Assembly: GCA_949290385.1 (NCBI GenBank) | Contig: CASERY010000032.1 | Location: 1 to 46,334, forward strand | DNA: 46,334 nt | Source: an uncultured bacterium | Lineage (GTDB): Bacteria; Verrucomicrobiota; Lentisphaeria; Victivallales; UBA1829 | Direction: 5' to 3' | Shown here: in pieces, positions 1 through 46,334 of the stretch | Layout: the number at the start of each line of letters is the position of its first letter | Numbering within the stretch: the stretch's first letter is position 1 | Position numbers and translations under genes: made by a program | The notes under the pieces: generated by a model | Databases searched by the model: none | Seen by the model: the letters and a program-made list of their open reading frames with translations, nothing else | What the model was told of the DNA's origin: nothing

Positions 1-486
1 ATCAGGAGGATTGAATTTATACCAGGAAGTTTTTAATCTCTTTGTTTTTGGGTCCTCCACTATATTTTCTTCAAACGCCGGAATCTCCTTGCGCAGCCGA
101 TCGGCTGTTTCCGGATCAAATTTTTCCAACCATTCGAGAAATCCTGCGGAATACCGTAGATAAATGGCTGTTTTTGCGATTCCTCCAAAATTCGGACTTC
201 TATCGCTGAAAAAAGTTGAACTTCCGCTGTACAGAGGCATTTGTCCAAATGATTTTCCGGAAGCATAAAATTTCATCCAGCTTTTATAGAAAGTCTTGCT
301 GCCATCTGCTGTATCATCATAGTGAAGAAGACTGCGGGAAATTCTTCCTTCGGCGGCTGTTTCCCACACAATGCTTTTTGAGTTTATATCCATGAATGGT
401 TCTGCAATATAAACATTGACTTCTGGTTCTTCTTTCAGATCGAAAAGTCCCTGTGCAATAATTTCATCCATTCGTTTCAGCAGCAT
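1..486 (-). CDS. Probable CRISPR-Cas large subunit (Cas8-like), N-terminal part
   Basis: The frame is open from ATG at 486 to the window edge, giving 162 residues of a longer protein that begins MLLKRMDEIIAQGLFDL. The start lies inside the last codons of cas6 and overlaps it by 10 bases, so the two are translationally coupled. I do not recognise a diagnostic motif in this stretch. The assignment rests on position: in type I-B operons cas6 is commonly followed by the large Cascade subunit Cas8b. It could instead be another cas or csx protein of similar position. No TAG occurs in the visible part. Confidence 0.5.
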   Translation of the reverse strand, partial: MLLKRMDEIIAQGLFDLKEEPEVNVYIAEPFMDINSKSIVWETAAEGRISRSLLHYDDTADGSKTFYKSWMKFYASGKSFGQMPLYSGSSTFFSDRSPNFGGIAKTAIYLRYSAGFLEWLEKFDPETADRLRKEIPAFEENIVEDPKTKRLKTSWYKFNPPD

Positions 487-1322
487 GTTGATTGTCTCCC
501 CAGTTCCATGAGTCCCCATCCAGTTGAATTAAGCCCGCCGAGCCCTGCGGACCATACCATCCGGTGAACTGCCTCGGGAGCCACGATACGCACAGGCGCA
601 CGGAATCCGCGGATGTTGACCCCTTTAAAGCACACCAGACGCGTCCGATAGGCGCATGTCCCGGTAAGCGGCAGAAAATCTATCTGAATCGGAAGACGAG
701 GTACTTCGTCCACACTCAGATTCCCAATAGACATGATATTTTCAAATACATCCGGACGAATTTCATGCAGACGCAGCAGCTTGTGTCTCAGATTGCCTGC
801 CAACAGTGTGCGACAGGAAGGAATTCCTTCTTTCGAATCATCCGGCATTTGATAAAGCGTTTTTCCAGCTTTTTTATACGGACACACAAGAAATCCGGCC
901 TGTCCAAAAGGCCGGTAGACCATTTCCGGACGAAATTCAGGAGCCGGAACCATTTGAATGGATTTCAGATGAAAAGTCTGCTGACAGACAGTCAGCTGTC
1001 GTTTCTACTGGAGAGCATCGGCCATCTGATAGAGAAGTTCTGGCCAGATGGAAGCAAAACGCATCCAGACCCGTTTTCCGAATTTCAGTCCGTTGCGTCC
1101 ATCGGGAAGTTTTATTTGTTCAGGTTTTGGATCGCTGCTGAATAACGAAAAGACAAAGAGTTTGATTCTGCTTCGCTGTGCACCATCATGCAGTTCTGCG
1201 GCCAGTTTCGGCGCATAGTCCGTCAGAACCCTGTAAAGCGCAGAGGACAATTCATGCTGGTAATTAAAAGGCAGAGAATTGCCGGAATCAGAGGAAGAGG
1301 AAAACTGCAATTCAATTTGCAT
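477..1322 (-). CDS. cas6: Cas6-family CRISPR RNA endoribonuclease (one in-frame TAG)
   Basis: Cas6 cuts the CRISPR precursor transcript within its repeats to release crRNAs. The 281-residue product starts MQIELQF and shows the Cas6/RAMP layout: the N-terminal pattern LPFNYQHELSSALYRVL, a histidine in the ELHDGA segment (about residue 65) that could be the catalytic one, and the glycine-rich C-terminal motif GLGGLNSTGWGLMEL. Codon 106 is TAG (1005-1007); the frame continues for 176 codons to TGA. Reading it as a stop would separate the N-terminal ferredoxin-like fold from the Gly-rich loop. The start has AGGGGG five bases upstream. It is the first gene of a cas operon that leaves the window to the left. 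Cas6 of this kind serves type I-B and type III systems. Confidence 0.85.
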
Positions 1323-2078
1323 GGAAACCCCCTGTAAGTTAAAAATTAGTATATTTTGATAAAATAATAGGATCTTATCTGATTAGACAAAGATGATTAT
1401 ATATGTTGAAAATAACGTTTTCAAGAGGCCTTATGAAAATATGTTGAATAATTAATTGTTCATTGAAATGAATGTTATCAAAAAATGATGTTATTTGAAT
1501 ATCGATTGATATTGATTAATAGAGAATATAAAAAAGAGTATATTTTTTATGCAGTTAAACGTTCATTCTGTCAATCATATCCCTTGTAAGACATAATGTA
1601 TTTGAGGAAAATCCTAGATCAAAATTTGTTTTTTCTGAAGATTTATCATCGAAATTTTTTCCCTGCCAAACTCCCTTATGGAGGAATTATTACATCTGTA
1701 AGATGACTCTTAAAAAAGCTACGTATCCTAAATCAGCTTCCTGCAGATTTATATTTTCAAGATGGACGTTCCTGCAATCAGTCTATATTGGAGAAGTCTT
1801 TTCAAAAGCCGTGTTGTTGAGTTTTATTGTTTGCCAGGCTTATTTTTCTTTGTACTGCATTTTTTATACTGCCGATTTTACAGAAAGAACTGGAAGCATT
1901 TTCCCGGATCCATCAAAAAATATTCATCTTCTTTTTTCCTGCATTTTTTATACAGAAAATTCCTGCCTGTTTACGGTTTCAGTTTCCTATATTTTTACAG
2001 GAAAATGATTTTTAGTTCAGCACAGGAGTCCTGCAGGAAAAGATGAATTGTCAGGAAATTTGAGCATTCCGGAAAAAA
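1323..2078. other. AT-rich intergenic region
   Basis: About 750 bases separate cas6 from the flavin-reductase-like gene. The part nearest cas6 (1340-1680) is very AT-rich and should hold the cas promoter. I found no regular repeat-spacer pattern, tRNA or convincing gene. Short open frames on the plus strand near 1703-2046 are rich in Phe and Ser, lack a well-placed ribosome binding site and match nothing I know. Confidence 0.6.
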
Positions 2079-3008: not shown

Positions 3009-4553
3009 TCACGACTGTGCATTGCTGCGTACATACCAGGAAGGTGTGATTCCCAGTTTGGTGACCCGGTAATGCATCATACGGGGCGATACCCCGAGTT
3101 CCCGGCCGGCTGCGGACATATTGCCATTATTCCGTTTCAAGGATTCCACAATGAGTTCTCTTTCGTAGCTTGCCAGAAGAACATCAATGGAGGCGTTTCC
3201 ATCCGGAAGCAGATTGCTGCCGGATTCTTTGCCGGTTTGAAGAGACGGAGGCAGGTTATACCCGTGAATGCAGTCATCCGTCGCAGTGAGAACAGCTCGC
3301 TCCATGCAGTTCTCGAGTTCCCGTACATTGCCGGGCCAGTGATAGGACATCAGCATATTGATGGCCGGAGTGGAAAGACGGACAATTTTTTTATTGTACT
3401 TCAAATTCATTTTTTCAATGAAATGTTCCGCCAGAAGAATAATGTCGCTTTTTCTCTTAGCCAGATCCGGCATGGTAATGGGAAAAATATTCAGACGATA
3501 GTATAAATCTTCCCGGAATTTCCCTTCTGCCATAAGCTGTTCCAGATTGCGGCTGGTGGCCGCAAGAAAACGCACATTCGAACGGAGTTCCTCATTGCTG
3601 CCGACACGGGAAAAAGTTCTTTCCTGAAGGAAACGAAGAAGTTTTACCTGAGTCTGAAGCGTAAGATCTCCGATTTCATCCAGAAAGAGGGTACCCCCAT
3701 CTGCAGCTTCCGCGCGTCCGATCCGTCGGGATGTGGCTCCGGTGAATGCTCCTTTTTCATGCCCGAAAAGTTCACTTTCCACCAGGGCCTCCGGAAGGGC
3801 GGCACAGTTCAGCGTAATGAAGGGCTTGTCTTTTCTTGAGGAAAGATTTACAATGGCTTTTGCAACCAGTTCTTTGCCTGTGCCGGAACTGCCTCGAATC
3901 AGGACAGTGGCATCAGACGGCGCCACCTGATGGATCTGTTTGTAAATCTACTGCATTTCGCGGCAGTTCCCTACAATTTCTCCAGGGGCTTCGTCGATAA
4001 GCATGTTGCGCAGACGCTCATTCTCTTCACGCAGGGAACGATGCTCTTCCTGTTCCCTTGTGAAAAGACTGACGGCATCCGCTGTGATATTGCCGACAAT
4101 TTCAAGCAGTGCGGCATCTCTTTCCAAATCCATGCCGGGTTCTATTTCCCGGTCAATACTCAGTGTCCCGATGACTTCATCCAGGTGAAAAATCGGAACG
4201 CAGATGAATGCGACAGCCGCTGTTTCATCCCTGGATTTCGTCCTGTTGAGAAAACGTTTGTCTTTACGGACATCCGGCACAATCTGCGGTTTTCCTGTGG
4301 CCGCAACCATTCCGGTTACTCCTTCCCCGATATGGTAGTGGCCCAGCTGCATTTCAGATTTGTCCAACCCGTGAGAAGCTTCAATGGACAGGGTGTCTCC
4401 ATGCAGAATCGTGATCGTGCCGCGAAGCATTTTCATTTCACGGTTTAAAACCGCCAGAATGTTATTGAGCAGCATTTCGATATCGCGTTCATGCACGATC
4501 GCTTTGCTGATCTCTTTAATCACTCTGATTTCTCTTGCAAGTGTATTATCCAT
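3009..4553 (-). CDS. NifA-like sigma-54-dependent transcriptional activator (one in-frame TAG)
   Basis: This 514-residue enhancer-binding protein has an N-terminal GAF sensor domain (about 1-170), a central AAA+ domain with Walker A GSSGTGKE (about 220) and the sigma-54 contact motif GAFTGA (about 265), and a C-terminal Fis-type helix-turn-helix ([19 protein letters not shown], about 475). Codon 202 is TAG (3948-3950), exactly between the GAF and AAA+ domains inside the conserved lead-in ([24 protein letters not shown]). As I recall it, Klebsiella NifA has Gln at this site. It is last in the gltB-gltD operon, 26 bases after gltD, with a GAGG ribosome binding site. It most likely controls the two sigma-54 promoters between gltB and glnA, which would make it self-regulated. 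The GAF ligand is unknown. Confidence 0.9.
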
Positions 4554-14680: not shown

Positions 14681-15781
14681 ATGCCCTCTTACATGTGGAA
14701 AGAAAAGCGGGAGAAGAAAGCGTTTCTGGCTCTTGCAGACGGAACCATATTTCATGGTGTCGGCTTTGGAGCTGAACAGGATACCGTGGGGGAAGTGGTA
14801 TTCAATACGGGGATGTCCGGATATCAGGAAATTCTGACGGATCCATCCTACGCCGGTCAGTTTGTTACGCTTACTGCTCCGGAGATTGGCAATTACGGGT
14901 GCAACGCGGATGATGTGGAATCCCGGGCTCTGTTTTTGAATGGACTGATTATTCATGAATTGAATCTGCCGTCGAATTTCCGTTCCGAATGGTCTCTGGA
15001 CGAATATTTGAAGCAGAATGGAAAAAGCGGAATATTCGGGGTGGATACCCGAGCCCTGACTTTGCTCCTGAGAGACCGGGGCTCCCAGAAGGCCTATCTG
15101 CATGTTTCAAAAGAACCTGTGGATGAAAAGGAAGCCGTGCGCAGAGCGCAGGAATGGGAAGGTCTGGATGGCAGAGATTATGCGTCGAAAGTGACTTGCC
15201 AGGCACGCTATGAATTCAACGCAGAAGGACGCTTTCATGTGGCGGCATACGATTTCGGAATCAAACTGAACATCCTGCGGGAGCTGGCGGCAGCGGACTG
15301 TCGCGTGACGGTTTTCCCTGCTAAAACGCCGGCTGAAGAAATTCTTGCGGATAACCCGGATGGCGTTTTCCTGTCCAATGGTCCGGCAGACCCTTCAGCG
15401 GTAACGTATGCTCTTGAAAATATTCGGAAGCTGCTGGGGAAAAAGCCTCTGATGGGTATTTGCCTGGGACATCAGCTGCTGGGGATCGCCTGCGGAGCTA
15501 CATGCGGACGTTTGAAATTTGGACATCATGGATGCAACCATCCTGTACGCAATCTTCTTACCGGAGCAGTGGAAATTACGAGCCAGAACCACAATTATGC
15601 GCTTCAGAAGCTTCCTGACTGTCTTGAAATGACCCACCTGAACCTGAATGACAATACGGTGGAAGGTATTCGGCACAAATCGCTGCCTGCCTTCAGTGTG
15701 CAGTATCATCCGGAGGCGGCTCCAGGGCCGCATGATTCGCAACAGCTGTTTGATGAATTCAGAAAACTCATGGAGAAATAA
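14681..15781 (+). CDS. carA: Carbamoyl-phosphate synthase small subunit
   Basis: CarA releases ammonia from glutamine and channels it to CarB for carbamoyl phosphate, feeding arginine and pyrimidine synthesis. The 366-residue protein has the CarA N-terminal domain ([20 protein letters not shown]) and a class I GATase domain with the nucleophile in [10 protein letters not shown] (about 261) and the [12 protein letters not shown] end motif. A TTAGGAG six bases before ATG 14681 favours that start over TTG 14675. pyrG follows 7 bases after its TAA. Confidence 0.95.
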
Positions 15782-15788
15782 CGGTCCG

Positions 15789-17408
15789 ATGAAAACGAAA
15801 CATATCTTTATTACGGGTGGCGTGGTATCCAGTCTTGGAAAAGGCATTACCGGCGCTGCGCTCGCCATGCTGCTGGAAAAACGCGGCTATCGTGTGGCTA
15901 TGCAGAAACTGGATCCGTATCTGAATGTAGATCCCGGCACCATGAGTCCGTTTCAGCACGGGGAAGTTTTTGTAACGGATGACGGAGCGGAAACAGATCT
16001 GGATCTGGGGCATTATGAACGCATTGCAGGGGTTACTTGTTCAAAGGCCAGCAACTATACTTCCGGAAAAATTTACAGCAATGTGATTGCCAGGGAACGT
16101 TCCGGCGGATATCTGGGCGGTACCGTTCAGGTGATTCCCCACATAACGGATGAAATCAAGAAGGCTATGCGTTCGCTGCATTAGCCACATGTGGACATTG
16201 CTATTACAGAAATTGGCGGTACTTCCGGTGATATTGAGTCTCTGCCTTTTCTGGAGGCTGCGCGTCAGTTTAAACTGGAATCTGCGGCAAATGATGTGAT
16301 TTTTCTGCATCTGACACTGGTGCCTTTCATACGGGCGGCGAAGGAACTTAAAACAAAGCCTTCCCAGCACTCTGTGGCGACTCTTCGTGGAATCGGCATT
16401 GAACCCGATCTGCTGGTATGCCGTTCAGAAGTGCCGCTGGAAGAGGATCATTTCAAGAAGCTGTCCATGTTCTGCAATGTACCCACACGCTATGTGGTGG
16501 AGGAACTGGATGTCAAGAATTCCATTTATGAAGTGCCGCTGGAACTGGCGCGCCAGGAACTGGATCTGAAAGTGCTGGAGCTGCTGAATATGGAGCCTGG
16601 AACGCTGGATCTGGACAGTTACCGTCAATGGCTGGACGGCGTTCTGCATCCGCAGAAGGAATGCACTGTGGCCGTTGTCGGCAAATATATCAAGCATCAG
16701 GATGCCTACAAAAGTATTTATGAAGCACTTCACCATGCGGGTATTAAGCATTCTGCCAGAGTGAAATTCCTTCTGGTGGAGGCGGAAGATCTGGAATCTT
16801 CGGATGCAGAAAAAATCCTGGGGCCTGCAGATGCCATTCTGGTGCCGGGTGGATTCGGGGAACGCGGAGTTCGTGGGAAAGTCAAGGCTGTGGAATACGC
16901 CAGGACGCATAAAGTGCCGTTCCTTGGAATCTGTCTGGGAATGCAGTGCGCTGTTATTGAGTTCGCTCGGGATGTGCTCGGCTGGAAAGACGCCAACAGC
17001 ACGGAATTCAATGAAATGACAACGCATCCGGTCATCGACCTGATGCTGGAACAGCGGAGCATTACAGACAAAGGCGGAACTATGCGCCTGGGGGCGTATC
17101 CGTGTGTATTTGATCCGGAATCTCTGGCAGCGAAAATCTACGGGAAAACTGAAATTTCGGAACGGCATCGCCATCGTTATGAGTTCAATTCAAAATACCG
17201 AAAAGATCTGGAGGACGCAGGACTTTCGATTGCCGGAACAAATCCGGAATCAGGACTTGTAGAGGTTGTGGAATTGAAAGATCATCCATATTTTATTGGC
17301 TGTCAGTATCATCCGGAGTTCAAATCCCGTCCGCAGGATCCGCATCCGCTGTTTGCCGGACTGATTGCCGCTGCATTGAAAGGACATGAACATGCCAAAG
17401 CGCAATGA
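15789..17408 (+). CDS. pyrG: CTP synthase (one in-frame TAG)
   Basis: Converts UTP to CTP with ATP and glutamine. Read through TAG it gives 539 residues, the normal family length. The N-terminal synthase domain has the P-loop-like [10 protein letters not shown]; the C-terminal GATase domain has the nucleophile in [10 protein letters not shown] (about 380) and [10 protein letters not shown]. Codon 132 is TAG (16182-16184), between [19 protein letters not shown] and [20 protein letters not shown]. Both flanks are conserved core sequence and the frame does not change, so decay is very unlikely. The residue at this exact position is variable in the family. It ends in TGA inside the start of carB (17-base overlap), so the two are coupled. 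Confidence 0.95.
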
Positions 17409-20400: not shown

Positions 20401-20658
20401 CGTCCAAATCTTCTGGACCTGATCCGGGACAAGGAAGTTCAATGGATTGTCAATACCACAGAGCAGGGTGAAGAAGCCATGGTGGATGAAGTACAGATCC
20501 GTTCAAAAGCCATTATTGCGGGAATTCCGCTGACAACAACGCTGGAGGGACTTGTTGCCGCCATTGAAGGGTTGACCGATAAAATGGATTTCGGCAGATT
20601 TGAAGTCTGCAGTCTGCAGGAATATCACCGTCATATTCATACAGCTTTGAAACGTTGA
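17392..20658 (+). CDS. carB: Carbamoyl-phosphate synthase large subunit (one in-frame TAG)
   Basis: The 1088 residues contain two ATP-grasp halves (the first opens [17 protein letters not shown]; the second [16 protein letters not shown] near 571) and a C-terminal MGS-like allosteric domain. The start [14 protein letters not shown] aligns directly with E. coli CarB, so ATG 17392 is preferred over 17386. Codon 153 is TAG (17848-17850) in [22 protein letters not shown]. coli has Glu there in RSGIAHTMEEALAVA. The ATP-grasp sequence continues directly after it. It is last in the glutamine operon and ends in TGA just before two hairpins. Confidence 0.96.
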
Positions 20659-22602: not shown

Positions 22603-23412
22603 ATGACAATCGAGAAAACTCATTCCTGTCCCAGTCTGACGGAATTGTATGCACGGAGCATTGTCAAGCCAGTGGCCATTGCCCATCGCGGAGCATGCGG
22701 ACTGTATCCGGAGAACACGGTTCTTGCCATGGAAAAGGCCCTGGCTTACGGCGCGGACATGATTGAATTTGATTTGAGACTTACGCGCGACGGAGTGCCG
22801 GTGCTGCTCCATGACCGTACCATTGACCGGACTTCGGACGGAAAAGGTGAACCGGGAGAATATACGCTGGATGAACTGCGTAAATTTAATTTTTCCTACT
22901 TTCGGAGCATCTGGGGGGAGCGTCTGAACAAGCCCTCCTATGCCAGTTTGATGATTCCGACTTTTGAAGAAATCCTTCAAAAATTCCGCGGAAGATGTAC
23001 CATGAATATTCAGGTGTATGATTCTTCCGAGGCCTCCTTGAAAGTGATCTGCCGCCTGTTCCGTGAATATGATATGTTTGATCTGGGATTCCTGGCAATG
23101 TCCGGATTCGCTGAAGCTGAAGCAGTCCGAAAAATAGATCCGGAAATTGAAACTGCCGTTCTGGGATCATGGGCATAGCGGGCTACGGTTCCGGAGATTG
23201 AGAAATGTCACGCTTTCGGATGCCGTTTCATCCAGCCGCCGATTGAACATCTGACAAAGGAAACGTTTGAATGCTGCAGAGATCTGGGCATGTATGCCAA
23301 TGTATTTTTTTCTGATCTGGATACAGAGATCCGGGATCTGGTGAAGCAGGGGGCTTCCGGTATCCTGAGCAATCGAATAGATATTCTCAGAGAGACGCTG
23401 GACAATCTGTGA
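22603..23412 (+). CDS. Glycerophosphodiester phosphodiesterase (one in-frame TAG)
   Basis: Cytoplasmic GDPD-family enzyme that hydrolyses glycerophosphodiesters to glycerol-3-phosphate and an alcohol. The 269 residues hold the family triad: AHRGACGLYPENT (about 28), IEFDLRLTRDGVPVLLHD (catalytic Glu/Asp and His, about 53-70) and ILSNRIDIL near the end. Codon 192 is TAG (23176-23178) in LGSWA, TAG, RATVPEIEKCHAFG; without readthrough the last quarter of the TIM barrel would be lost. AAGGAAG lies 8 bases before the ATG. It ends in TGA. Confidence 0.88.
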
Positions 23413-29763: not shown

Positions 29764-32010
29764 TTACTGCTTGTCAAGGGTAAGCATATCTCCCATAATG
29801 TGAAGGGTTTCATCCAGATAAATATCTTTGTCTTGATCGTTTTGTTTGTCATTGTTATGGGAAGGCATCTGATCTTCCAGAATTTTTTCCTGTTCTTCCT
29901 GAATTTTCTTTTCATTAAGATATTCTTTCCAGCGTTCCTCAAGGTTGAGAGAAAGCACTTTCTGTGCCTGAAGTTTCTGAAATTCCTAGATATCCTGGCG
30001 CATTGCCTGGAAAACAGGACTTTTATCGACTCTCTCCTGAGATCTTTTCTGGAGTTCAGGAAGAATAGCTTTTAAATGCTCAGCGCCGGAGAACAAGGTG
30101 TACTTTCTCGGAGGGACAGTGTCCCACTGCAATGCGTAGTCAAGTTTGTCCTCTCCCACATTTTCCAGGGTTTCTGTAAAGTCTGGGAAAGTAATGTCCG
30201 GGATCACCCCTTTGAGCTGAGTGGATTCTCCATTGATCCGGTAAAATTTTGCATTTGTAAGTTTTACTGTGCCGCCTTTAAACGACTGGGCCGTAAAGAA
30301 GGGCAGAAAACGGTCTATATCGGAAACCGTCTGAACTGTTCCTTTGCCGTGGGTTTTCTTGTCACCAACAATGACTGCCCGCCCGTAATCCTTCATGGCA
30401 GCTGCAAAAATTTCAGAGGCCGATGCACTGAACAGATTTGTCATAACAATCATGGGACCATCATAAAGAATCTAACCATTGTCATGGTCATTTTCAACCT
30501 GGATGCCGTTGCGGTCGCGGACCTGCACCATGGGACCTTCCGGAATGAAGAGTCCGGAGAGGTTAATGGCTTCCAGCAGACTGCCGCCACCATTGGAACG
30601 CAGGTCTATGACAAGGCCGTCGATTTTTTCTTTTTCAAAGTCTTTCAGAATTCTGGCTACGTCGCTGGAGGAGCTTTTGGCATCTGGGTCGTTCCTGCGG
30701 AATCCTTCAAAATCAAAGTAGAAGGAAGGAAGCATGATGACTCCGATTTTTTTCACAGATCCGTCATCCAGTGTGATTTCCCGGATTTGTCCTTTTGCTT
30801 CAGACTCCTTCAGCTGAACTTTGTCGCGAACTATGACAATTTTTTTCGGGATGGCCTGAAGGCCTTTGGATCCTTCCAGAACGGTCAAAGTGACTTGGGT
30901 CCCGCGTTTGCCTCGGATGAGTTCTACAACCTTGTTGAGGGGCATGTCAACAACATCGACCGGATCTCCATCTTCCTGCTGAACAGCGATAATCCGGTCG
31001 CCGGCTTTAAGTCTTCCATCAAGGTCTGCAGGACCGCCGGGGACAATTTCGTTGACTTTGGTATAGCCGTCTTCAGAGGAGAGAACAGCCCCAATGCCGA
31101 CCAGGGAAAGGCTGATGGCAATATTAAATGCCTCATCTGTCTGGGGAGACATATAAGAGGAGTGAGGATCAAAGACTCCGGCATATCTGGAAAGATATCC
31201 TTCCATAACATCCATTGGCGTCATATTGTCGTAATAAGACGAGACCTGGGAAATGCGATAGAGAATCCGTTCTTTCGGCGTTTTCTGGTGTTCGCTGCTG
31301 ACAGGTGCAGCTTCTTCCGTAGTATTTTTTTCCTGCGGGGAACCTGTCTCACTGCCGGATTGTCCGGAGGAATCCTTTTCTGCTTTTTCCTGTTGAAGAT
31401 CCTGTTCTGTTGCGCGGTCTGAAAGGATGGCTACAATGAGATCGTTCTTAATGCGTTTTCTCCAAAGTTCCTTCAGTTCATTTTCGTCTTTAGCCCAGGG
31501 GGCTTTGCTGTGGTCAAACTCAAAGGATTCATCTACAGTAAAGTCAATATCCCCGTTCAAATATTCCTTGGCAAAAGCCTCATAAGCCTTCCAGCGTTCC
31601 ATAAGACGGTTGAATACGTCGAAGGCAAACTGGACATCACCCCGCTGAAGTTGAGCGCAGAGCTGATCGCGCTGATAGTTGAATTCATCAATATCGGACT
31701 GCAGGAAAAAAACTCTCTGCGGGTCAAGACTTTTCAAATAGAGATCAAACAATTCTCTGGATGTCTGCGCATTGAGTGGTTTTTTCTGATAATGCTGTTT
31801 AGCTATCACGGTGGTTACAATGGAGGCAATGGCAGACATTTCCCGGGTAGGTTTTAAAAGGTCTTCTGTCTTGCCGGCTTGTTTTGTCAGTGTAGCGGAG
31901 GCGTCCTGTTCTGCGGAAAATACATTTGCCGGGAGTCCGAAAAACAGCAGCAGGAAAAGACAAAGCATCCGTCCTGCATTCAAAAGAGTCATTTGTGTGT
32001 GTACTTTCAT
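29764..32010 (-). CDS. prc: C-terminal processing (tail-specific) protease (two in-frame TAGs)
   Basis: Periplasmic S41 serine protease of the Prc/Tsp type, 748 residues from ATG 32010 (an in-frame ATG at 32046 is also possible). A signal peptide (LCLFLLLFFGLPANVFSA) is followed by the N-terminal helical domain, a PDZ domain (about 310-380) and the catalytic core with Ser in FSASASEIF (about 530) and Lys in HGKGTVQ (about 555). A Glu/Ser-rich insert (about 230-260) is unusual. Codons 513 and 675 are TAG (30472-30474, 29986-29988). At the first, NG-TAG-ILYDGP aligns with DGQVFYKGP of E. coli Prc, i.e. Gln. Without readthrough the catalytic dyad would be lost. It ends in TAA. Confidence 0.93.
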
Positions 32011-32046
32011 AAGTTTCAATCCGTAAATAAAGAGTTGTAAATTCAT

Positions 32047-32822: not shown

Positions 32823-33593
32823 ATGGCTGAGAAAAAGGAAAAAAATATGATTCTTCGCATTATTAGCTGGATTTTTGCCGTCCTGATTGTGCTGATTATC
32901 ATCGCAGTTGTATAGATCAACCCGATTGCAAAGAGTCTGATTGTGAACGCAGGGTCTGCTTAGACTGGCGTTCAAATTTCCTTGGATTCTATTAATATTT
33001 CACTGCTTCGCGGGCGTGTTGAGATTCGGAACCTGATTGTGGATAATCCGGAAGGGTATTCTTCTGATCATGCCATTCTGCTGGGAACCGTGAATGCAGA
33101 AATTGACCCTTGGAGTCTACTGGGCAGCAAACTGATTATTCATGAGCTGACTTTGAAGAATATCAATGTGAATTTTGAGACCAAGCTTTTAACCAACAAT
33201 ATCTCTGCCATTCTGGATAATGTGAACTCAAAAATAGGTTCATCTGAAAAATCGGGAACCTCCGAGAAATCTTCTACGGATGAAGAAGGCAAGAAAATGC
33301 AGATCGATTATCTTGTCGTTGAAAACGTAGGGGCGCACTTGGTTTTAAGCGGAGTCAGCACAGAAGGCGCCGGCGTTGCTGTGACGATTCAGCCGATGAG
33401 GGACCTGGGACGCGGAAATGACGGTATTACACCTGGGGAATTGATTGCAAGGGTCCTGACAGCTTTCCTGACGGATTCCTAGGAACAGGGGATTTTAACC
33501 GTGTCCGGATCGGTGGAGGATTCTGTCCGGGAACTGAATGTCGGCAGTTTGAAGAGTCTCCTTGGCGGCAAAGACGACAAGGATAAAAATTAA
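32823..33593 (+). CDS. AsmA-like membrane-anchored protein (three in-frame TAGs)
   Basis: 256 residues with a short cytoplasmic lead, one transmembrane helix (WIFAVLIVLIIIAVV, about 16-30) and an AsmA-type domain: VQISLDSINISLLRGRVEIRNL, NPEGYSSDHAILLGTVNAEIDP and IIHELTLKNINVNFE. AsmA-like proteins act at the inner membrane of Gram-negatives in envelope lipid traffic. TAG occurs at codons 31, 47 and 220 (32913, 32961, 33480). Under the standard code only a fragment in the middle remains, without its membrane anchor. AGGGAG lies 6 bases before ATG. It ends in TAA and is followed by a strong terminator. Confidence 0.88.
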
Positions 33594-33899
33594 GAAAAAT
33601 GAACGCGGACGGCCGATAAAAAACTACGGTGTCCGGATTGCTTTCTTGCATCTGGCTTGCATTCGGAGTATTCAATTTTTTGAAAAATCCAGAGTCAGTA
33701 AATCAAACAGTCCAGATCGGTCGCTTGTGTCGGGAGTATCCGGACGTAAGATTTGACTGAGATCTCCCCAATGGAGAAACGGTGTTTCATCGGATATTTT
33801 CCGGTGAGATGCCGTTTTTTTCTGCCTGAAAAGTTGACAGAGTTCTTCTGCAGGCTACATTATAATGTGAACTTCCAGCAATCAGGAAAGGAGGCTATT
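33594..33899. other. Intergenic region with a terminator and promoter-like sequence
   Basis: Contains the terminator at 33778-33821. Just after it TTGACA (33834-33839) and TATAAT (33861-33866) occur, but 21 bases apart; TACATT at 33856 gives a better 16-base spacing. This is the likely promoter of the cytidylate-kinase-like gene. No gene is seen. Confidence 0.4.
33778..33821 (+). terminator. Rho-independent terminator of the AsmA-like gene
   Basis: A 16-bp stem with several G-T pairs (33778-33793 with 33801-33816), a 7-base loop ATATTTT and a T-run ending at 33821. Confidence 0.7.
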
Positions 33900-34511
33900 A
33901 TGAAACTGCCTATTGTTACAATCAGCCGGGAATTCGGCAGCCATGGCCGTGAGATTGGTGAAAAAGTCGCAAAGATGCTCGGAGTTGAGTTCTACGACAA
34001 GAAAATCATTGAGGAAGCGGCTAAGGAAAGCGGACTCTAGCCTGAGATCATTGAATAGAATGAACAAAAGAACCAGTATCGTTTTTTGAATTACATGCCG
34101 ATGACTTCCTGCTATATGTGGGAACCCACATTGATGGACAAGATTTATATAGCGGAACATCGTGTGATTACCCGTCTTGCAGAAAAAGGCCCCTGTGTGA
34201 TTGTAGGCCGTGTGGCAGATTTTATTCTGTCTGATCGGAATGATGTGATGAATGTTTTCATTTATGCGGATCCTGAAGTTCGTGTGCAGAATGTTGTGAA
34301 GGATTTGGGGCTGGATCCGGTCAAGGCCAAAAGAGAAATTCGTGTTATTGACAATCATCGTGCAATGTACTACAATGCTATTTCCTCAAAGGATTGGGGA
34401 GCCAGAAGCAATTACCATCTTCTGATCAACAGCGGTACATTTGGAGATGATCTCTGTGCTGAGGTGATTCATCAGGCAGCCCTGAACTTTGAGCAGACGC
34501 AAAAAGAATGA
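33900..34511 (+). CDS. Cytidylate kinase-like protein (two in-frame TAGs)
   Basis: 203 residues of the cytidylate kinase-like family (P-loop SREFGSHGREIGEKVAKMLG at the start, then FYDKKIIEEAAKESGL, CVIVGRVADFIL and YADPEVRV). Members phosphorylate nucleotides or a related substrate; this branch is distinct from Cmk. Codons 47 and 53 are TAG (34038, 34056), in the segment after ESGL where homologues usually carry polar residues. GGAAAGGAGG lies 6 bases before the ATG, so translation does begin here. Ends in TGA. Confidence 0.85.
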
Positions 34512-36036: not shown

Positions 36037-37374
36037 TCAGTGTTTCTGAAGAATGGTCAGGGATTCAAAGTGTGCGGTGGCCGGGAACATGTCCAGCAGT
36101 CCTGCTTCAGCAATCTGATAGGGGCCTTTTTTGACCAGAGCATCCAGGTCCCGTTTCAGGGTATCCGGCGAACACGATACATAAATCAGAACCCGCGGAC
36201 ACCAGCTTAATATGGCATCAATCATGTCTTTCTGCAAGCCGGTTCTGGGCGGGTCTACCAGAATGGCTGATTCTTCCGGGGAATGGCCGTGCAGATACTT
36301 TTCCAGAAGAGTGCCGGCATTGCCTGCCTCATAGTGACAGCGTCCGGTGAGTCCGTGATTCTACGCATTGGCTCTGGCTGAATCAATGGCACGTGGATCC
36401 AGTTCAATACCGATGCAGGTGAGTTCCGGATTTTTCCGGGCCGCGGCAATGGAGAAGATGCCTGTGCCGCAGTAGAGATCTGCCAGAAAACGAATTTCGT
36501 GATGCTGAACGGTATCCGAAACTCTTCTTACAAGCTCAGAAGCAACTGGGATGTTTACCTGGAAAAAAGATTTTAGGGGAACCTGAAATGTTCCAAAGGA
36601 GCCTAGCTGTTCATGAAGAATTGTATTGGAGAGGCCGGAATCTGCATCTGTCCAGATTCTGACCCCGTCGGATGGCGTCCAGCGAAAGCTGACATGCCTG
36701 CAGGACTGGCGGTTCTGAAGGCTGGAGTTGGAGTTTGAACTTGAACTCATCAGAAAATGAGAATGTGCATCCTGGATGGCCTGTTCAGAAAGCAGGCAGC
36801 GCCGGATGGGTAGGAAAGAAACATTGTCTTCTCCCATGTATCCGGTTTGTATTTGATTGCCCCTGACTTCACAGGAGAAACGGAGTTTATTGCGCCATCC
36901 GAAACGGCTTGGTGCTCCGAATGGCGTACGAATATGATCCTTGTCGGCAAGGCCGCTCCGGAGAAGGAAGGACTCAAACTGGATTTGCTTCCACTGGAGT
37001 TCTGTTTCGTAGTCGGTTTGCTGATATGAACAGCCTGGACAGGCATGAAGGGCATTCTTTTCTGTAAGGGCATAAGGACATACCGGCTGAATTCGATGTT
37101 CTGATTTTTGGAGGATCCGCAGAAGCCTGCCTGTTGAAAAATTCTTTTTGGAGGCTGTAATTTGAATTTCTGCAAGGTCTCCTGGAACTCCGCCTCGGAC
37201 AAAACAGATTTTCCCGGAATCGAGTTTTCCGAAAGAAGCTCCGCCGAATGCAAAGCCTGTTATTGCCAGCTTCTCTATTTCGTTATGCGCCATTTGCTTT
37301 GATCTATCCTGTGTGTAGGCTGTTCGGGCACTGCCGGGTGAAAAACGCAGACGATCGGATGCGGTCTGCTGCAT
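36037..37374 (-). CDS. rlmD: 23S rRNA (uracil-5-)-methyltransferase, RlmD/RumA type (one in-frame TAG)
   Basis: Methylates a uridine in 23S rRNA using S-adenosylmethionine. Up to 445 residues; an in-frame ATG at 37293 (start MAHNEIEKLAITGF) gives 418 and may be the true start. A TRAM domain is followed by Fe-S cysteines (CPY...CPGCSYQ), SAM motif DLYCGTGIFSIAAA, VDPPRTGL and the catalytic Cys in YVSCSPDTLKRDL. Codon 338 is TAG (36361-36363) in ARANA, TAG, NHGLTGRCHY, just after the SAM-binding Asp strand. Readthrough is needed to reach the catalytic Cys. No tRNA-modifying TrmA features stand out, but the subfamily (RlmD or RlmC-like) is not certain. Confidence 0.9.
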
Positions 37375-38800: not shown

Positions 38801-39625
38801 ATGAAGATGCGTCTGTTGAAACGAATTGCAGTTGCTGTGTGCCTGTCTGGCGTATGCCTCCTCAGCGCCTGTAAGGATTATGTGGGCAAAGAGGAATCCC
38901 ATGCTTTGTATCAGAAGGGGGAAACATGCAAGAACCAGTAGAAATATGCCGACGCAGTCAATGCATTTGAAGAATTCCTTCTGATTTGTCCGAAATCTGC
39001 AAAAACGCATTTTAAACTTGCCGAAATTTATAAAGATAATCTCGGAGATCCCATCCGCGCCATTTATCATTACCAGAAGTATCTGGAACTTGCCAAGCTG
39101 AGCCGTGATGACCAGCGCAATATCCGTCAGTATATTCAGCTTTGCAAGGTGGATGCCTGCAGAAATCTCCAGAATGAACTGGGCTTGACACCTCCGGTCC
39201 CCGAATCTCGAGACAATTCTTCTGAACTGGCTATGCGCAATGCCGAACTGAATGCCGTAAAATCCAAAATGATGGAATATGTGGAAGCTAACCGCAAACT
39301 TAAAAAAGACAATGAAGAATTGATGAAACGTTTAACTTCCAGCAGTAGCAGTTCTGCCAGAACACCTACAGCTTATCCTAGCCGGGAATCCACGTCTGCT
39401 GCAGCTCGCCCGGGAACTTCCAGTACTGCTGTTTCGTCCGGATCGGTTTCTTCTGTGGGTGGTACAGAATATAAAGTTGTGCGCGGAGATACACTGACAA
39501 AGATTTCCAGAAAACATTATGGATCAGCTAGTTATGTTGGAAAAATCCGGGAGGCCAATAAAGGCCGTATCGGCCCGAATGATGCAATCTATGCGGGACA
39601 GACTTTGATCCTTCCGGCCAAATAA
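38801..39625 (+). CDS. TPR/LysM lipoprotein (one in-frame TAG)
   Basis: 274 residues: signal peptide with lipobox LLSAC (Cys25 lipidated), two TPR-like repeats (YADAVNAFEEFLLICP and GDPIRAIYHYQKYLELA), a coiled coil (about 145-175, NAELNAVKSKMMEYVEAN), a Ser-rich linker and a C-terminal LysM domain (YKVVRGDTLTKISRKHYGS...YAGQTLILPAK) that should bind peptidoglycan. Codon 47 is TAG (38939-38941) in KNQ, TAG, KYADAV, at the small-residue position of the first TPR; homologues often have Gly or a polar residue there. GGAAGGG precedes the ATG. Probably links the outer membrane to the cell wall. Confidence 0.85.
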
Positions 39626-39739: not shown

Positions 39740-40363
39740 ATGAGATTTCGATTCGCGGGTGCTCGTTTTCTGGGGGCGCTGTTCTGCTGTATAGCGTCCG
39801 TTTCCTGTATTTCCATGCCGGAAGTGAAACAGACTGAACCGGTGATTTTTGATCTTGGAGAATAGTCTCCTGTGGATCTGCCTGAAGGATGCCATGTGGA
39901 AGTTCTTCCCTTTACCAACAGTTCGGCTGCAAGGTTGAAGATTCTTGTGCGTGAGGACAGTCAGAAAGTGAAGACCGATGAATTTCACCGATGGTCCCAG
40001 ACCCCGTCCAGAATGTTGACTCATTATCTGAAAGAGGCATTCCGCAGTAAAAACAGCTCTGCAGTCGTGTCGGAAGAAGACAAGTGTTTTGTGCTTGGCG
40101 GAGAGATTCTTGCCTTTGAGGGAAATGAGAAAAGCCGGACAGGAAAGCTGTCTGCAGTGCTGTCCCTGAGCCGGGACGGGCGGACGGAATATATTCCTGT
40201 CCAGCTGGAGATTCCGTTTTCAGAAGAGGATGGGGCTTCTTCGGAGAATACGGTGGTGGCATTGCGAAAGGCTTCTGCTGAGCTGGCCGCTGAAGCTGCT
40301 GAAAAAATCAGAAACTGGGGATCGTCTTCCAGTATGAAAAATGGATCCCGGCGTAACTTGTGA
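39740..40363 (+). CDS. ABC-type transport auxiliary lipoprotein (one in-frame TAG)
   Basis: 207 residues with a signal peptide and lipobox ASVSC (Cys23). The rest resembles the ABC-type transport auxiliary family (PF03886-like), partners of Mla/MCE-type lipid transporters: HVEVLPFTNSSAARLKILVR, FHRWSQTPSRMLTHYLKEAF and VVALRKASAELAAEAAEKI. No permease or MCE gene is nearby. Codon 42 is TAG (39863-39865), in the linker after the lipid anchor. Under the standard code only the signal-less domain would remain. It ends in TGA. Confidence 0.75.
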
Positions 40364-42161: not shown

Positions 42162-42475
42162 GGAAAAGTTTTTGGCAGATTTCTCACAGCTTTGGAGGAC
42201 AGACCGATTAATGGAGCTTGGTATTTGCGTCCATTGATCCGGGGATTTACCGCACAATGGAGTTAAGAAGCCGAGCTGCAGGGATTGGGAAATGCAGAAG
42301 AAATGGGCCGTGGCATCCATAAGAAGATGTTCCTGCTCTAGGAATTTGATGTGGGCTATGCCGGAAATGAGTGTATAAGGATTTTTGCTCTTTTTCTGCT
42401 TAATAATGTCTGTTGGGAACCGAAAGGAACGCAGCGAGGCATTCGGGATTAAGAGGGAAGAAACAGAGAGAACAG
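42162..42475. other. Gap between trkA and trkH
   Basis: 314 bases. No gene, repeat or strong promoter is evident. trkH is probably transcribed with trkA or from a promoter here. Confidence 0.4.
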
Positions 42476-44017
42476 ATGAATTTTAAACTGATTTTTCATG
42501 TTGTTTTTATGGTGGCAGTGATTGTTTCAGGAGCCATTGCTTGTTCTGGAATTGTATCCTGGATCATGCGGGATCCGGTTGAGGATGTCCTGAAACTGAC
42601 ACTTTGCGGATTAGTTCTTGTGCTGATTTCTTTAACGGTTGTGTTCCTGACGAGGATAAGGACGGAGCAGGAACGCAAAGCCGGACGGAAGGAAGGATTC
42701 GCCATTGTGGCCTTCAGCTGGATTGTTGCTACACTGATAGGGGCTGTTCCGTATGTGGCTGTTACCGGGATTTACTGGTACGATGCTGTTTTTGAAAGCT
42801 AGTCTGGATTTACCACAACGGGAGCGAGTATCCTGGAACCGGGAACCAGGCTGATGTTTGGGGGAGTGCTTCCAAAAGGAATAGAGAGCCTTTCCTACGG
42901 GGTTTCGTTCTGGAGACTTTTGACGAACTGGCTGGGAGGAATGGGAATTGTTGTGCTTTCCATTGCGATTCTGCCTCTGTTGAATATCGGGGGGCAGATG
43001 CTTTACAATGCAGAAAGTACGGGTGTCAAGTCTCAGGACAGCCAGATTACACCGAGAATAACGTCATCCGCAAAAATTCTATGGAGTGTTTATCTCCTGT
43101 TCACAGGGGTGGGTACAGTATTGCTGATGTTGGGGGGAATGTCCTGGTTTGATGCAGTCTGCCATATGTTTTCTGCGGTATCCACAGGGGGGTTTTCTCC
43201 TCGCCAGGCTGGGCCCATGTATTATAACAGTGCATATATTGATTGGGTATTAATCTTTTTCATGTTCATGTCATCCTGCAATTTTGTATTGCATTACCGG
43301 GCGATTATGGGACATCCGAGAGATTACTGGAAAGATGATGAATTTCGCCTGTTCTGTTGGATTGTAGGATTGTCTACACTGATTATTACGCTGAGTTTGA
43401 CGTTTACGGAAGGAGTCAGGGACAGCCTTTTCGGAACGGTGTTCTACGGTGATTTTTGGACGTCTCTGCGTTTCGCGGCGTTTCAGGTCGTTTCCATTGT
43501 ATCCACCACAGGATATGCTTCCAGCAATTACTGTGACTGGCCGTCGCTTACTTGTGCGGTTCTGTTTCTGCTGATGTTTGTCGGAGGATGCGGAGGATGT
43601 ACTGCGGGCGGAATAAAATGTGTGCGACTGCTGCTGCTGGGCAAAATCAGCTATGCTGAAATAAAACGTTCTGTATATCCGCACATGGTTCCAAACGTGC
43701 AGTTAAATGGAGTTCATCTGGAGTCTGGTATTCAGCAGAAGGCCATTGCATTTTTTGCATTGTATATCAGTTCTTTTCTTGGGTTTGTTCTGATTTATCC
43801 ATTGCTTTGTCCATCCATGAGTCTGGAAACGTCTATTGCGGTTTCTCTGACCAGTCTTAGCAATATCGGACCGGGATTCGGTCAGATTAGTCCGGCATAT
43901 TCGTGTGCCTGGATTTCGGCTCCGGCAAAACTTGTCATGGCTTTTGAGATGATTCTGGGACGACTGGAATTGTATACTCTTCTTGTTGTGTTGAATCCCT
44001 TCTTCTGGAAAAAGTAA
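42476..44017 (+). CDS. trkH: Trk potassium transporter membrane subunit (one in-frame TAG)
   Basis: The 513-residue protein has the multiple transmembrane helices and repeated filter loops of TrkH (SGFTTTGASIL; SAVSTGGFSPRQ; SIVSTTGYASS; SLSNIGPGFG). Codon 109 is TAG (42800-42802) in YDAVFES, TAG, SGFTTTGASI. The pore helix and filter sit either side, so it must be decoded for a working channel. Homologues mostly carry a Val, Met, Thr or Ala here, so this site is the least friendly to Gln. The start MNFKLIFHVV is chosen by hydrophobicity; upstream extension to 42413 is charged. It ends in TAA. Confidence 0.92.
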
Positions 44018-44123: not shown

Positions 44124-44151
44124 TTGCCTTTCTGGCTAAAGGTTGTATATT
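44124..44151 (+). promoter_or_regulatory. Possible promoter of the HU gene
   Basis: TTGCCT and TATATT are separated by 16 bases, about 50 bases before the HU start codon. The -10 form recurs elsewhere in the window. Confidence 0.4.
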
Positions 44152-44200
44152 AAATGTCATACAACGAAAATGAAACTTATTAAGATAAGGATGGGTTAAA

Positions 44201-44491
44201 ATGTCTCTGACAAAACGTGAAATTGCAAAAGAAGTTGCCGTTCGCATCGGATCCACTCAGACAGACGCAGCCGCAGCCGTGCAGGCTATTCTGGATATCA
44301 TGGCTCAGGAATTGGCCAATGGCGGTCATATTGAGCTGAGAGGATTTGGCGTTTTTGAAATCAAGACCCGTAAAGCCAGCGTTGGACGCAATCCGCGCAA
44401 GCCTGAAAATACCGTCAAGATTCCGGCTCGTAAAATTGTGAAATTCCGTGCAGGAAAAGAGCTTGCAGCTGTCCTTGAGAAAAATTCCTGA
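44201..44491 (+). CDS. HU/IHF-family DNA-binding protein
   Basis: 96 residues with the HU/IHF fold: N-terminal LTKREIAKEVAVRIG, the ELRGFGVFEIKTRKA segment and the beta-arm RNPRKPENTVKIPARKIVKFRAGKEL. It bends DNA and organises the chromosome; the RNPRKPE form does not clearly separate HU from IHF. It stands alone and is followed by a strong terminator. It ends in TGA. Confidence 0.93.
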   Translation: MSLTKREIAKEVAVRIGSTQTDAAAAVQAILDIMAQELANGGHIELRGFGVFEIKTRKASVGRNPRKPENTVKIPARKIVKFRAGKELAAVLEKNS

Positions 44492-44807
44492 TAGATAGAA
44501 AAAGAATGGTATGAAAGGAACTGTTTTTTTAAAAACAGTTCCTTTTTTTTGTACCTTCAAGAAGCTTTAAATGCAAGTCCCTTTGGGGACAAAGTAGACC
44601 GAGTTCTTGAAAATAGTAGGATATAATCCTGGCTTCGGGGGGAGGGGGCTCCCTTCTGAAGAAAGTTTTTTCCCCTTCTCATGCTCATCCATTTTTACCC
44701 ATTTTCAACTCTTTTGGGACTTTGCAGATAAAGAGGAAAGACCGTTTGAGTGAGCAGTTATGCAAACTGGAATTCAAAAAATCCTGAAGATTCAAGACCG
44801 TCTGATT
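44492..44807. other. Intergenic region between convergent genes
   Basis: Contains the HU terminator, a small GTCCC/GGGAC hairpin (44577-44590) and a G-rich stretch (GGGAGGGGGCTCCC near 44640-44653). No gene is seen. Confidence 0.5.
44517..44550 (+). terminator. Rho-independent terminator of the HU gene
   Basis: A perfect 12-bp stem, GGAACTGTTTTT (44517-44528) with AAAAACAGTTCC (44531-44542), then eight T. Confidence 0.92.
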
Positions 44808-46334
44808 TTAATCGGCTTGTTCTGATTTCATGAGCTCCAGAGCTTTTTTCATAAAAGGATCCTCATGCAGCAGCCAGTCAGAATAATCTTCTGAACTGGA
44901 ATTCCAATAATCAAAAAATTCCTCAGGATTAATTTCCACAGGCACTTCCACATTCCCATGAAATGTATCAGCCGCTGTTTTGCAGTCAGAGATATCGACA
45001 GCGGGTTCCACGGAAAAGATTAGTTTTGAATTTGGCAAAGCAATTTGGAGTGGAGTTATTCCTTTCCCGAGACTTTCCGAATTCTGGATACCTACTGAAA
45101 TAAGCTGGTCGCATCTGTTTGCAATGGCAAGTAAGCTTCCGGTTGAGGAATAGATGTCCTGAACCAGAACATAGACAGGGCAGGAAAGGTTCAGAGAATC
45201 TTCATCCGGTGTGATTTCCAGTTTGTCCTTATCAATTAGAAAATATTGATTTCCAAGAAATGGAATCTATTTTCCGGCTTGTTCATAAACGGGGATTTCA
45301 TCTGATGAATTTTGTTCTAATTCAGGGAAATATTTAGATAGAACTTGCCTGTTTCGTTTTGTATATTCTCTAGTTTCAGGTGAGTCTGGTATTGCCAGTT
45401 GATTTTCCACTGAAATTTTTCCTTTAACTAATTTTGCGAGAATTTTTTGCCAGACTCGGTCGCTGCCTCCTCCGTTGTAACGCACATCAAGGACAACGGC
45501 CTTTATTTCCTTCCCGGCTCCTGCTTTAAGTATTTCGCTTGTGTAAAAATCTATGTGCTTGGGATTCATTTCTGCAATACGCAAATAGAGAATTTTCTGT
45601 TCCGGCAGATACAGTACAATTTTCTCAGAAGCACACTATGGATTCAAATGCCATTGATATTGAACTGGATTGTCTGTCCGCAATATGACTTCCTTGCCTT
45701 CCTTTGTACGGAACTTGAATTCCTTGGGGTAGTTTTCTAAAAGAAGATAAAAATTATCCCTAACAGACGAAAATGCTGCGCCGAAAAATATTTTGTGTTT
45801 GAAGTCAAATCGGTTCAGTTTGTCTTGCAGAGCAGGAAGCAGTTTATCCGGAGATTGCCCGTCGATACTGATAAGTTCAGATCCGTAAGGCAATTCTATG
45901 TTTCCCTGAGTATGTCGGTATTGACTGTAATATTTGCCTTGATAATATTTTAAGCGGATTGGCTATCTTCGGGTTATGTCATGATATGCTTGATTTAAGA
46001 AATCTGAGCTATAAGTTCTATTCTATTCTTCTTCTGTTACAGCAAAAAGATCCTTTGCAAATGGAGCATCACGAAGCGTATATGGGATGGTGCTTACCCA
46101 TAAATGATTGCCTTTGCATGCGGTCAAGGCATCTTCAAGCAACTCTGCAAAATCCAGCAGGGATTCATCCTCGGTAATTTGGGAGCGGTACTCTGCAAGT
46201 TTATCCCAGACATCGATTCCGAAAAGTTCCCGGTTAGCCTGTGCCAATGGAAAAGTATTGCGCAGTTTTTCTGTCATAAAATCGAAGTCCTCAAGCATCT
46301 GTTCTTTGGTGAGTTTTGGAAGAACCGCATCGGG
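44808..46334 (-). CDS. S41-family peptidase, N-terminus outside the window (four in-frame TAGs)
   Basis: The frame runs from the right edge to TAA at 44808, 508 codons, interrupted only by four TAGs (46023, 45963, 45636, 45267). The core S41 pattern is clear: AVVLDVRYNGGGSDRVWQ, then PVYVLVQDIYSSTGSLLAIANRCDQLISVG and LGKGITPLQIALPNSK. The Ser in YSST is the likely nucleophile, but the Glu usual in the SAxE motif is replaced by Ser. A PDZ-like part is around GSELISIDGQSPDKLLPALQ. Presumably exported; the signal peptide, if any, lies beyond the window. Confidence 0.8.

What the first reader, a model, noticed from the sequence alone, without database searches (positions are those of the whole stretch)
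477..46334. UAG is reassigned to a sense codon across a bacterial chromosome segment
Thirteen genes contain 20 in-frame TAG codons: cas6 (1005), NifA-like (3948), pyrG (16182), carB (17848), GDPD (23176), prc (30472, 29986), AsmA-like (32913, 32961, 33480), kinase-like (34038, 34056), rlmD (36361), TPR/LysM (38939), ABC-auxiliary (39863), trkH (42800), S41 (45267, 45636, 45963, 46023). In every case the same frame and the same protein family continue after the codon. No internal TAA, TGA or frameshift was seen in these genes. None of the 32 visible gene ends is TAG (18 TGA, 14 TAA). Several affected genes are essential or nearly so. This is an alternative genetic code. Recoded UAG is known from some phages and ciliates; I do not know of an established case for a bacterial chromosome read this way.
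Basis: partly seen in the sequence, partly recalled or inferred. Interest (0 to 1): 0.97.

Follow-up and report, generated by a model that had tools for sequence, protein, structure and literature searches.

The report
Bacterium reads UAG as amino acid
An uncultured Lentisphaeria bacterium lacks, in the place where its relatives carry it, the gene for the protein that ends translation at UAG, and has UAG inside genes in every large stretch of its chromosome that was sampled, where it is likely read as glutamine; this would be the first bacterial chromosome known to use UAG as an ordinary codon.

Summary
In detail: all 20 TAG codons in 13 window genes are in frame. It holds across the part of the genome that I sampled. 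In 505 kb of this 2.68 Mb MAG, 348 called genes hold 165 TAG codons, in all 22 large stretches. Where relatives' proteins align well there are 29 in-frame TAG against 2 TGA and 1 TAA; five relatives treated alike show 0-3 TAG each. None of 89 homology-anchored gene ends is TAG. Release factor 1 is not in the assembly. In 31 of 32 relatives prfA follows rpmE; here rpmE is followed by 402 bases without prfA and then by an exporter gene that follows prfA in six of them. RF2 is present. No CUA tRNA was found in an assembly that is 78% complete, so the decoder is unknown. No PylS. Glutamine fits best; Ala, Lys, Arg and Glu fit worse, but Pfam scores were mixed. Six literature searches listed no UAG reassignment in a bacterial chromosome.

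The parts
477..1322 (-). cas6-like gene read through one TAG
   Evidence: TIGR01877 35.9 bits, below its cut-off
1005..1007 (-). in-frame TAG, cas6-like codon 106
3009..4553 (-). NifA-like sigma-54 activator read through one TAG
   Evidence: PF00158 238.9 bits across the TAG
3948..3950 (-). in-frame TAG, NifA-like codon 202; relatives L,Q,Q
15648..17408 (+). pyrG (CTP synthase) read through one TAG
   Evidence: PF06418 383.7 bits
16182..16184 (+). in-frame TAG in pyrG; relatives A,A,E,N,S
17386..20658 (+). carB read through one TAG
17848..17850 (+). in-frame TAG, carB codon 155; 80 other genomes: E45 D16 A10 Q4 S2 V2 N1
22603..23412 (+). GDPD family gene read through one TAG
23176..23178 (+). 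in-frame TAG, GDPD codon 192
29764..32046 (-). prc/tail-specific protease read through two TAG
   Evidence: TIGR00225 278.6 bits, above cut-off
30472..30474 (-). in-frame TAG, prc codon 525
29986..29988 (-). in-frame TAG, prc codon 687
   Evidence: TIGR03545 38.5 bits, below cut-off
32913..32915 (+). in-frame TAG, codon 32
32961..32963 (+). in-frame TAG, codon 48
33480..33482 (+). in-frame TAG, codon 221
33753..34511 (+). kinase-like gene read through two TAG
   Evidence: TIGR02173 32.4 bits, below cut-off
34038..34040 (+). in-frame TAG, kinase-like codon 96
34056..34058 (+). in-frame TAG, kinase-like codon 102
36037..37374 (-). rlmD-like methyltransferase read through one TAG
36361..36363 (-). 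in-frame TAG, rlmD-like codon 338
38801..39625 (+). TPR/LysM gene read through one TAG
   Evidence: LysM model 46.6 bits, below cut-off
38939..38941 (+). in-frame TAG, TPR/LysM codon 47
   Evidence: no NCBIfam match
39863..39865 (+). in-frame TAG, codon 42
42413..44017 (+). trkH read through one TAG
   Evidence: PF02386 184.4 bits
42800..42802 (+). in-frame TAG, trkH codon 130
   Evidence: no NCBIfam match
45267..45269 (-). in-frame TAG, codon 344
45636..45638 (-). in-frame TAG, codon 221
45963..45965 (-). in-frame TAG, codon 112
46023..46025 (-). in-frame TAG, codon 92

Best explanation
This Lentisphaeria chromosome lacks prfA (release factor 1) in the slot where its relatives carry it, ends none of its 89 checked genes with TAG, and is predicted to read UAG as a rare sense codon, most likely glutamine. 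Shown: in-frame TAG on every large stretch sampled, no TAG among the checked gene ends, prfA absent from its conserved slot and not found elsewhere in the assembly, an RF2 gene. Inferred: the history was codon capture (UAG had almost vanished as a stop in this family, RF1 then became dispensable and was deleted, and UAG came back by CAG-to-TAG mutation); the decoder is a glutamine tRNA, either a CUA tRNA in the unassembled part of the genome or the existing CUG tRNA reading UAG by mispairing at the first codon base. Termination would rest on RF2 alone.
For: In-frame stops in aligned genes 29 TAG: 2 TGA: 1 TAA, against 0-3 TAG in each of five relatives. 165 TAG in 348 called genes, 1.37 per 1000 codons, in all 22 large stretches. 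Homology-anchored ends 45 TAA, 44 TGA, 0 TAG. The RF-1 domain search finds only RF2 and a short PrfH/ArfB-like gene; prfA is present in 38 of 40 relatives. prfA follows rpmE in 31 of 32 relatives; rpmE-prfA-exporter in 5 of them; here rpmE, 402 bp, exporter, inside one contig. TAG stops are already rare in four members of the family: 0/55, 2/47, 2/57, 1/70. The RF2 gene itself carries an in-frame TAG. Meaning: homology columns rank Gln first (25 sites; 40 sites); flanking context of 156 TAG sites gives Gln over Ala by 26.9 nats (true-Gln samples 14.4+-8.0, true-Ala -26.7+-10.3), over Lys 11.6, over Arg 10.8; Gln minus Glu -0.9 (true Gln 0.0+-6.8, true Glu -16.0+-7.5). PylS not found.
Against: No CUA tRNA in the assembly. 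The MAG is 78.5% complete, so RF1 could sit relocated in the missing part; 22 of 197 genomes of the class have no RF1 match over the cut-off, most likely for incompleteness, so absence alone is weak and the argument rests on the slot. In the genus with the nearest rpmE (g5) the exporter is not next to prfA. Glutamine is not clean: at 40 TAG columns relatives carry Ala 9.7 (site-weighted) against Gln 5.2; the likelihood gain over background is 4.7 nats against about 26 (lowest 11.7) for real Gln codons; my sum of Pfam bits over 30 proteins leans about 5 bits to Ala; the fucose isomerase column is Ala in the five structures shown. With all residues used for training, context alone put Glu 5.2 nats above Gln.
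Confidence: 0.85

Rival explanations
1. UAG is a sense codon but means alanine (or is decoded ambiguously), through an alanine tRNA with a CUA anticodon.
For: Ala is the commonest residue of relatives at TAG columns (7.4 of 25; 9.7 of 40); Pfam scores lean to Ala in the RuvA, GT4, thioesterase and HAD genes, among others; AlaRS does not need the anticodon (recalled).
Against: Flanking context lies about 5 standard deviations from true-Ala samples; Gln is 4.7-fold over background at TAG columns; the AlaRS structures shown carry R or Q at the TAG column; the TrpC column is R in 116 of the best 120 homologues; GCN to TAG needs at least two mutations.
Confidence: 0.07
2. UAG is unassigned: RF1 is lost and no dedicated tRNA exists, so near-cognate tRNAs (mainly tRNA-Gln CUG) read it slowly and with errors, and TAG survives mostly at tolerant sites. 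This overlaps with the best explanation where the main product is Gln, so the two confidences do not add up to one.
For: No CUA tRNA found; TAG is under-represented in aligned columns (40 of 165, 24%, against 39% of CAG and 28% of CAA) and conserved less than real Gln codons; engineered RF1-free E. coli inserts Q, Y, D, V at UAG (PMC6207430, passages).
Against: TAG lies in the genes for RF2, AlaRS, PyrG, CarB, RuvA and UvrC; slow decoding there should be costly. No Tyr was seen at TAG columns and Lys is near background.
Confidence: 0.2
3. Pyrrolysine: UAG encodes the 22nd amino acid across the genome.
For: UAG is the pyrrolysine codon in known systems (recalled).
Against: No PylS in the assembled part: one 20-bit fragment match, far below the 178-bit cut-off. 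Context and columns look like an ordinary polar residue.
Confidence: 0.01
4. Pseudogenes, assembly errors, or contamination by a recoded phage or other organism.
For: MAG in 168 contigs, 2% contamination estimate.
Against: Only TAG is enriched, not TAA/TGA; TAG is in all 22 large stretches; many affected genes are housekeeping genes; the missing prfA is seen inside one contig.
Confidence: 0.01

Closest known systems
Genetic code 15 phages (TAG = Gln) of the gut
   Same: UAG read as glutamine in a bacterial setting; metaproteomic evidence is reported for two crAss-like phages (PMC9523058, start of abstract in the listing only)
   Different: Those are phage genomes whose code differs from that of the host; here housekeeping genes of the chromosome carry TAG and RF1 is gone from its slot
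UGA-recoded bacteria (Mycoplasma and symbionts UGA=Trp; Gracilibacteria/Absconditabacteria UGA=Gly)
   Same: Stop codon captured in a bacterial chromosome; RF2 is lost in some and kept in others (XS4 keeps it, PMC12213064, passages)
   Different: There the captured stop is UGA; PMC8629427 (2021; passages) says that the bacterial changes known before it were all UGA, and itself adds arginine codons. Here UGA is still a stop and UAG/RF1 is lost
Ciliates and other eukaryotes with UAG as sense
   Same: UAG as sense, often Gln (PMC8629427, passages)
   Different: Eukaryotic nuclear genomes; UAA and UAG nearly always change together there (PMC10553269, start of abstract in the listing). Here UAA is still a stop
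RF1-deleted, recoded Escherichia coli (GRO, RFzero)
   Same: Bacterium without RF1 (PMC6207430, passages; PMC4434889, start of abstract in the listing)
   Different: [quoted passage not shown] here it is natural and TAG is re-used in genes

Membership tests
UAG-to-sense chromosomal genetic code | TAG in frame in conserved essential genes, across the genome | tested here: met
   on 505 kb of 2.68 Mb
UAG-to-sense chromosomal genetic code | TAG not used to end genes | tested here: met
   0 of 89 homology-anchored ends
UAG-to-sense chromosomal genetic code | Loss or change of the UAG-reading release factor | tested here: met
   slot empty, and no copy in the 78% assembly
UAG-to-sense chromosomal genetic code | tRNA with CUA anticodon | tested here: inconclusive
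   none among 46 tRNA matches nor by pattern; several needed tRNAs are also missing from the list
TAG = Gln code (NCBI table 15 type) | The amino acid is glutamine | tested here: inconclusive
   Gln best; Pfam comparison mixed
Code 15 phage or prophage | Recoding confined to phage genes | tested here: not met
   TAG in pyrG, carB, alaS, prfB, uvrC, ruvA
Pyrrolysine code | PylS present | tested here: not met
   in the assembled part only
UGA recoding (codes 4/25) | TGA not a stop | tested here: not met
   44 of 89 ends are TGA; RF2 524.7 bits, cut-off 370
Any of these codes | Peptides across UAG seen in the proteome | not testable with these tools
   no protein data

The most novel reading that the evidence does not exclude
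A normal-sized bacterial chromosome has deleted release factor 1 and gives UAG to glutamine: the first natural UAG-sense code in a bacterium, caught early enough that the empty prfA slot, the near-extinct stop in sister genera and the still-rare new codon (5% of CAG) are all visible.
Probability: 0.83. Interest if true: 0.95.

Novelty: new variant of a known kind. Interest (0 to 1): 0.92.

Why it matters
The stop-codon changes on record for bacterial chromosomes, as far as I found, are UGA. A natural loss of RF1 with re-use of UAG would show that UAG can be captured too. Related genera give a rare before-and-after view (TAG stops about 2% of checked ends in four relatives, RF1 gone here, TAG as sense here), so codon capture becomes testable with genomes in hand. 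It also warns that annotation with table 11 cuts the proteins of such lineages into pieces, and it is a natural counterpart of RF1-free engineered E. coli.

Tried and rejected
Tried without result: a CUA tRNA by Rfam tRNA at lax E-value and by a loop pattern; of its six hits ARAGORN calls none a CUA tRNA, one is a chance hit in a tRNA-Arg, one stretch only contains the neighbouring tRNA-Gln, and one resembles a tmRNA piece by eye. One of the 46 tRNA matches, cut by a contig end, was not named by ARAGORN; I read its anticodon by eye as UUC, Glu. Two multi-TAG proteins searched in the family gave only distant relatives or none, so no close orthologues for the meaning test. First homology counts were swamped by antisense frames; I replaced them by best-frame filtering. 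tRNA-Gln of relatives was not in the DNA I held, so no comparison. Paralogues inside the genome gave three columns (A, F, Q), too few. The structure search of two more genes and of GDPD did not help the meaning. Considered and rejected: phage island, pseudogenes, pyrrolysine, contamination (see rivals). My notebook says that RF2 has a TGA frameshift site; that is wrong: the TGA lies at its end, overrun by the alignment, and the RF2 frame is whole from its ATG.

The Pfam comparison covers 30 of 110 TAG genes, chosen by me for recognisable families; three of the 30 had no family over the site and add nothing. Column counts use only sites with aligned relatives: 25 and 40 of 165. Terminal-stop counts leave out the 21 'far' cases here and 6-16 per relative.
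Full report
What it is. The window is contig C32 of a metagenome-assembled genome, 2,680,693 bases in 168 contigs, 78.48% complete, 2.03% contaminated. Its order also holds Lentisphaeria bacterium SUG133: the closest CarB among named records (80% identity) lies there, and that genome is G041 = G178, placed in the same order but another family (identity of the two handles inferred from identical prfA coordinates). The habitat is not known to me.

The observation. To test this without circularity I aligned proteins of 212 loci from relatives and other bacteria (3.48 Mb) to 504,832 bases of this genome. After keeping the best frame at each place, 661 alignments covered 53,352 codons. Well-aligned in-frame stops were 29 TAG, 2 TGA and 1 TAA; before the flank filter 46, 7 and 2. 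The same procedure on five relatives gave internal TAG/TGA/TAA of 1/1/0 (G041), 1/1/0 (G008), 0/1/0 (G002), 1/6/2 (G020) and 3/1/1 (G119), from samples of 352-400 kb each.

Genome-wide use. A codon-usage gene call with TAA and TGA as stops gives 348 genes, 120,334 codons, with 165 TAG in 110 genes, 1.37 per 1000 codons, against 27.8 CAG and 5.8 CAA. All 22 stretches with more than 1500 codons have TAG, 0.6 to 2.4 per 1000. This call found 16 of the 20 window TAGs, as it left out the four-TAG gene at the contig end. Affected genes include those for RF2, AlaRS, RuvA, UvrC, PyrG, MreB, MurF and TrpC and CarB.

Gene ends. Where an alignment reaches the end of a relative's protein, the next stop here is TAA 45, TGA 44, TAG 0, and in 21 cases lies more than 12 codons on. 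In the same family TAG ends are 0 of 55 (G008), 2 of 47 (G002), 2 of 57 (G020) and 1 of 70 (G119); in the other family 6 of 48 (G041). So in the relatives sampled from its own family UAG is a rare stop.

Release factors. A search for the RF-1 domain over the whole assembly finds two genes: RF2 (524.7 bits to TIGR00020, read through its one TAG; SPF and GGQ motifs, names recalled) and a 192-residue PrfH/ArfB-like gene below all cut-offs. prfA is found in 38 of 40 relatives (37 genomes over the cut-off, G001 just below it and full length; G016 and G035 without), and over the cut-off in 175 of 197 genomes of the class. By my reading of the E-values, of the 21 others below it only G163 is over 90% complete. 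So absence alone is weak evidence.

The empty slot. In 31 of 32 relatives whose prfA region I held, prfA follows rpmE at 59 to 367 bases, the exception being G008. In five of them the order is rpmE, prfA, exporter gene, and in G008 prfA is followed by the same exporter; in the others, including genus g5 with the nearest rpmE, the exporter was not found within the stretch held. In this genome rpmE (L248 944-1147) is followed by 402 bases without a prfA remnant (tblastn hits of prfA to the first 6 kb of the contig have E 0.35 or worse), then by that exporter (1550-3355). All this is inside a 13,571-base contig, so incompleteness does not explain it. Relocation of prfA into the missing part remains possible but needs a second event.

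Decoder. 46 tRNA matches were found; none has a CUA anticodon (the one that ARAGORN did not name reads as Glu-UUC). Relaxing the threshold added one 13.7-bit match and a loop pattern gave no CUA tRNA. Several tRNAs that a cell needs, for instance Ser-GCU, Ile-GAU and Ala-UGC, are also missing from the list, so absence says little. Both tRNA-Gln genes, CUG and UUG, are present with five-pair anticodon stems as I read them (sequences).

Meaning. Three tests. (a) Residues of relatives at TAG columns, against substitution tables learned from the same alignments: Gln first, Ala 1.5 nats behind (25 sites; bootstrap Gln 491, Ala 416 of 1000); Gln first, Ala 4.3, Ser 8.3, Glu 10.4, Lys 12.5 behind (40 sites; bootstrap Gln 315, Ala 156 of 500), smaller when a share of neutral sites is allowed (1.8 for Ala, 4.4 for Glu). 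(b) Pfam bit scores of 30 TAG genes read as Gln or Ala were mixed; my sum over the covering families is about 5 bits in favour of Ala. (c) Flanking-residue context of 156 TAG sites, no homology used, half of the data for training: Gln over Ala 26.9 nats, over Lys 11.6, over Arg 10.8, Glu 0.9 above Gln; true-Gln samples give 14.4+-8.0, 6.3+-8.0, 5.3+-7.1 and 0.0+-6.8, true-Ala samples -26.7+-10.3 for the first, true-Glu samples -16.0+-7.5 for the last. With all data in training Glu is 5.2 above Gln and Ala 20.0 below it. So (c) speaks strongly against Ala; (a) and (c) together speak against Glu. Two deep columns, TrpC R in 116 of the best 120 homologues and AlaRS R or Q in the five structures shown, suit Gln better than Ala; fucose isomerase is Ala in the five shown, three of them near-identical chains, and suits Ala. 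I conclude Gln, at about 0.85, and note that TAG sits at more tolerant sites than normal Gln codons do.

How it likely works. Steps shown: prfA absent from its slot; UAG absent from the checked gene ends; UAG inside genes. Steps inferred: near-extinction of UAG stops made RF1 dispensable; RF2 now ends all genes; a glutamine tRNA reads UAG, so C-to-T changes in CAG are silent.

Other genomes. I take these four for terminal stops overrun by the alignment, because their frames end near the match end and all four have RF1, but did not check. The genomes without RF1 match G035, G132, G133, G151, G047 and G079 show no TAG in the rows printed, some of them partial or paralogous; one protein has little power (about 1.5 TAG expected), so this only says that I found no second recoded member.

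Literature. Searches of an open-licence full-text library without preprint servers listed no UAG reassignment in a bacterial chromosome; I saw listings (20 of 42, 20 of 77, 2 of 2, 14 of 14, 15 of 24 and 15 of 17 papers). PMC8629427 (passages) says that the bacterial changes known before it were all UGA, adds arginine codons, and mentions 290 bacterial stop codons with an inferred amino acid as candidates; it does not say in the passages seen whether any was UAG in a relative of this genome. PMC13092985, PMC12213064 and PMC6207430 were read in passages only.

Noticed in passing
L047 2388 (contig C8): The only full class-I release factor gene found, prfB, itself contains an in-frame TAG (codon 42), so making RF2 would depend on UAG being read.
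   Followed up: partly
L147 3131-3907: trpC has two adjacent TAG codons; the first falls on a position that is Arg in 116 of the best 120 homologues.
   Followed up: partly
genome G163 (class survey): A 92% complete relative (8% contamination) with five RF-family matches but none at RF1 level; its CarB shows one TAA and no TAG inside the match.
   Followed up: no
G000 contigs C5 and C158: A tRNA-Gly/tRNA-Tyr pair occurs twice with equal scores, on two contigs.
   Followed up: no
window 477-1322: A cas6-like gene lies near the contig edge with no repeat array in the first 3.2 kb.
   Followed up: partly
L248 1148-1549: 402 bases between rpmE and the exporter where relatives have prfA; no recognisable remnant.
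   Followed up: yes
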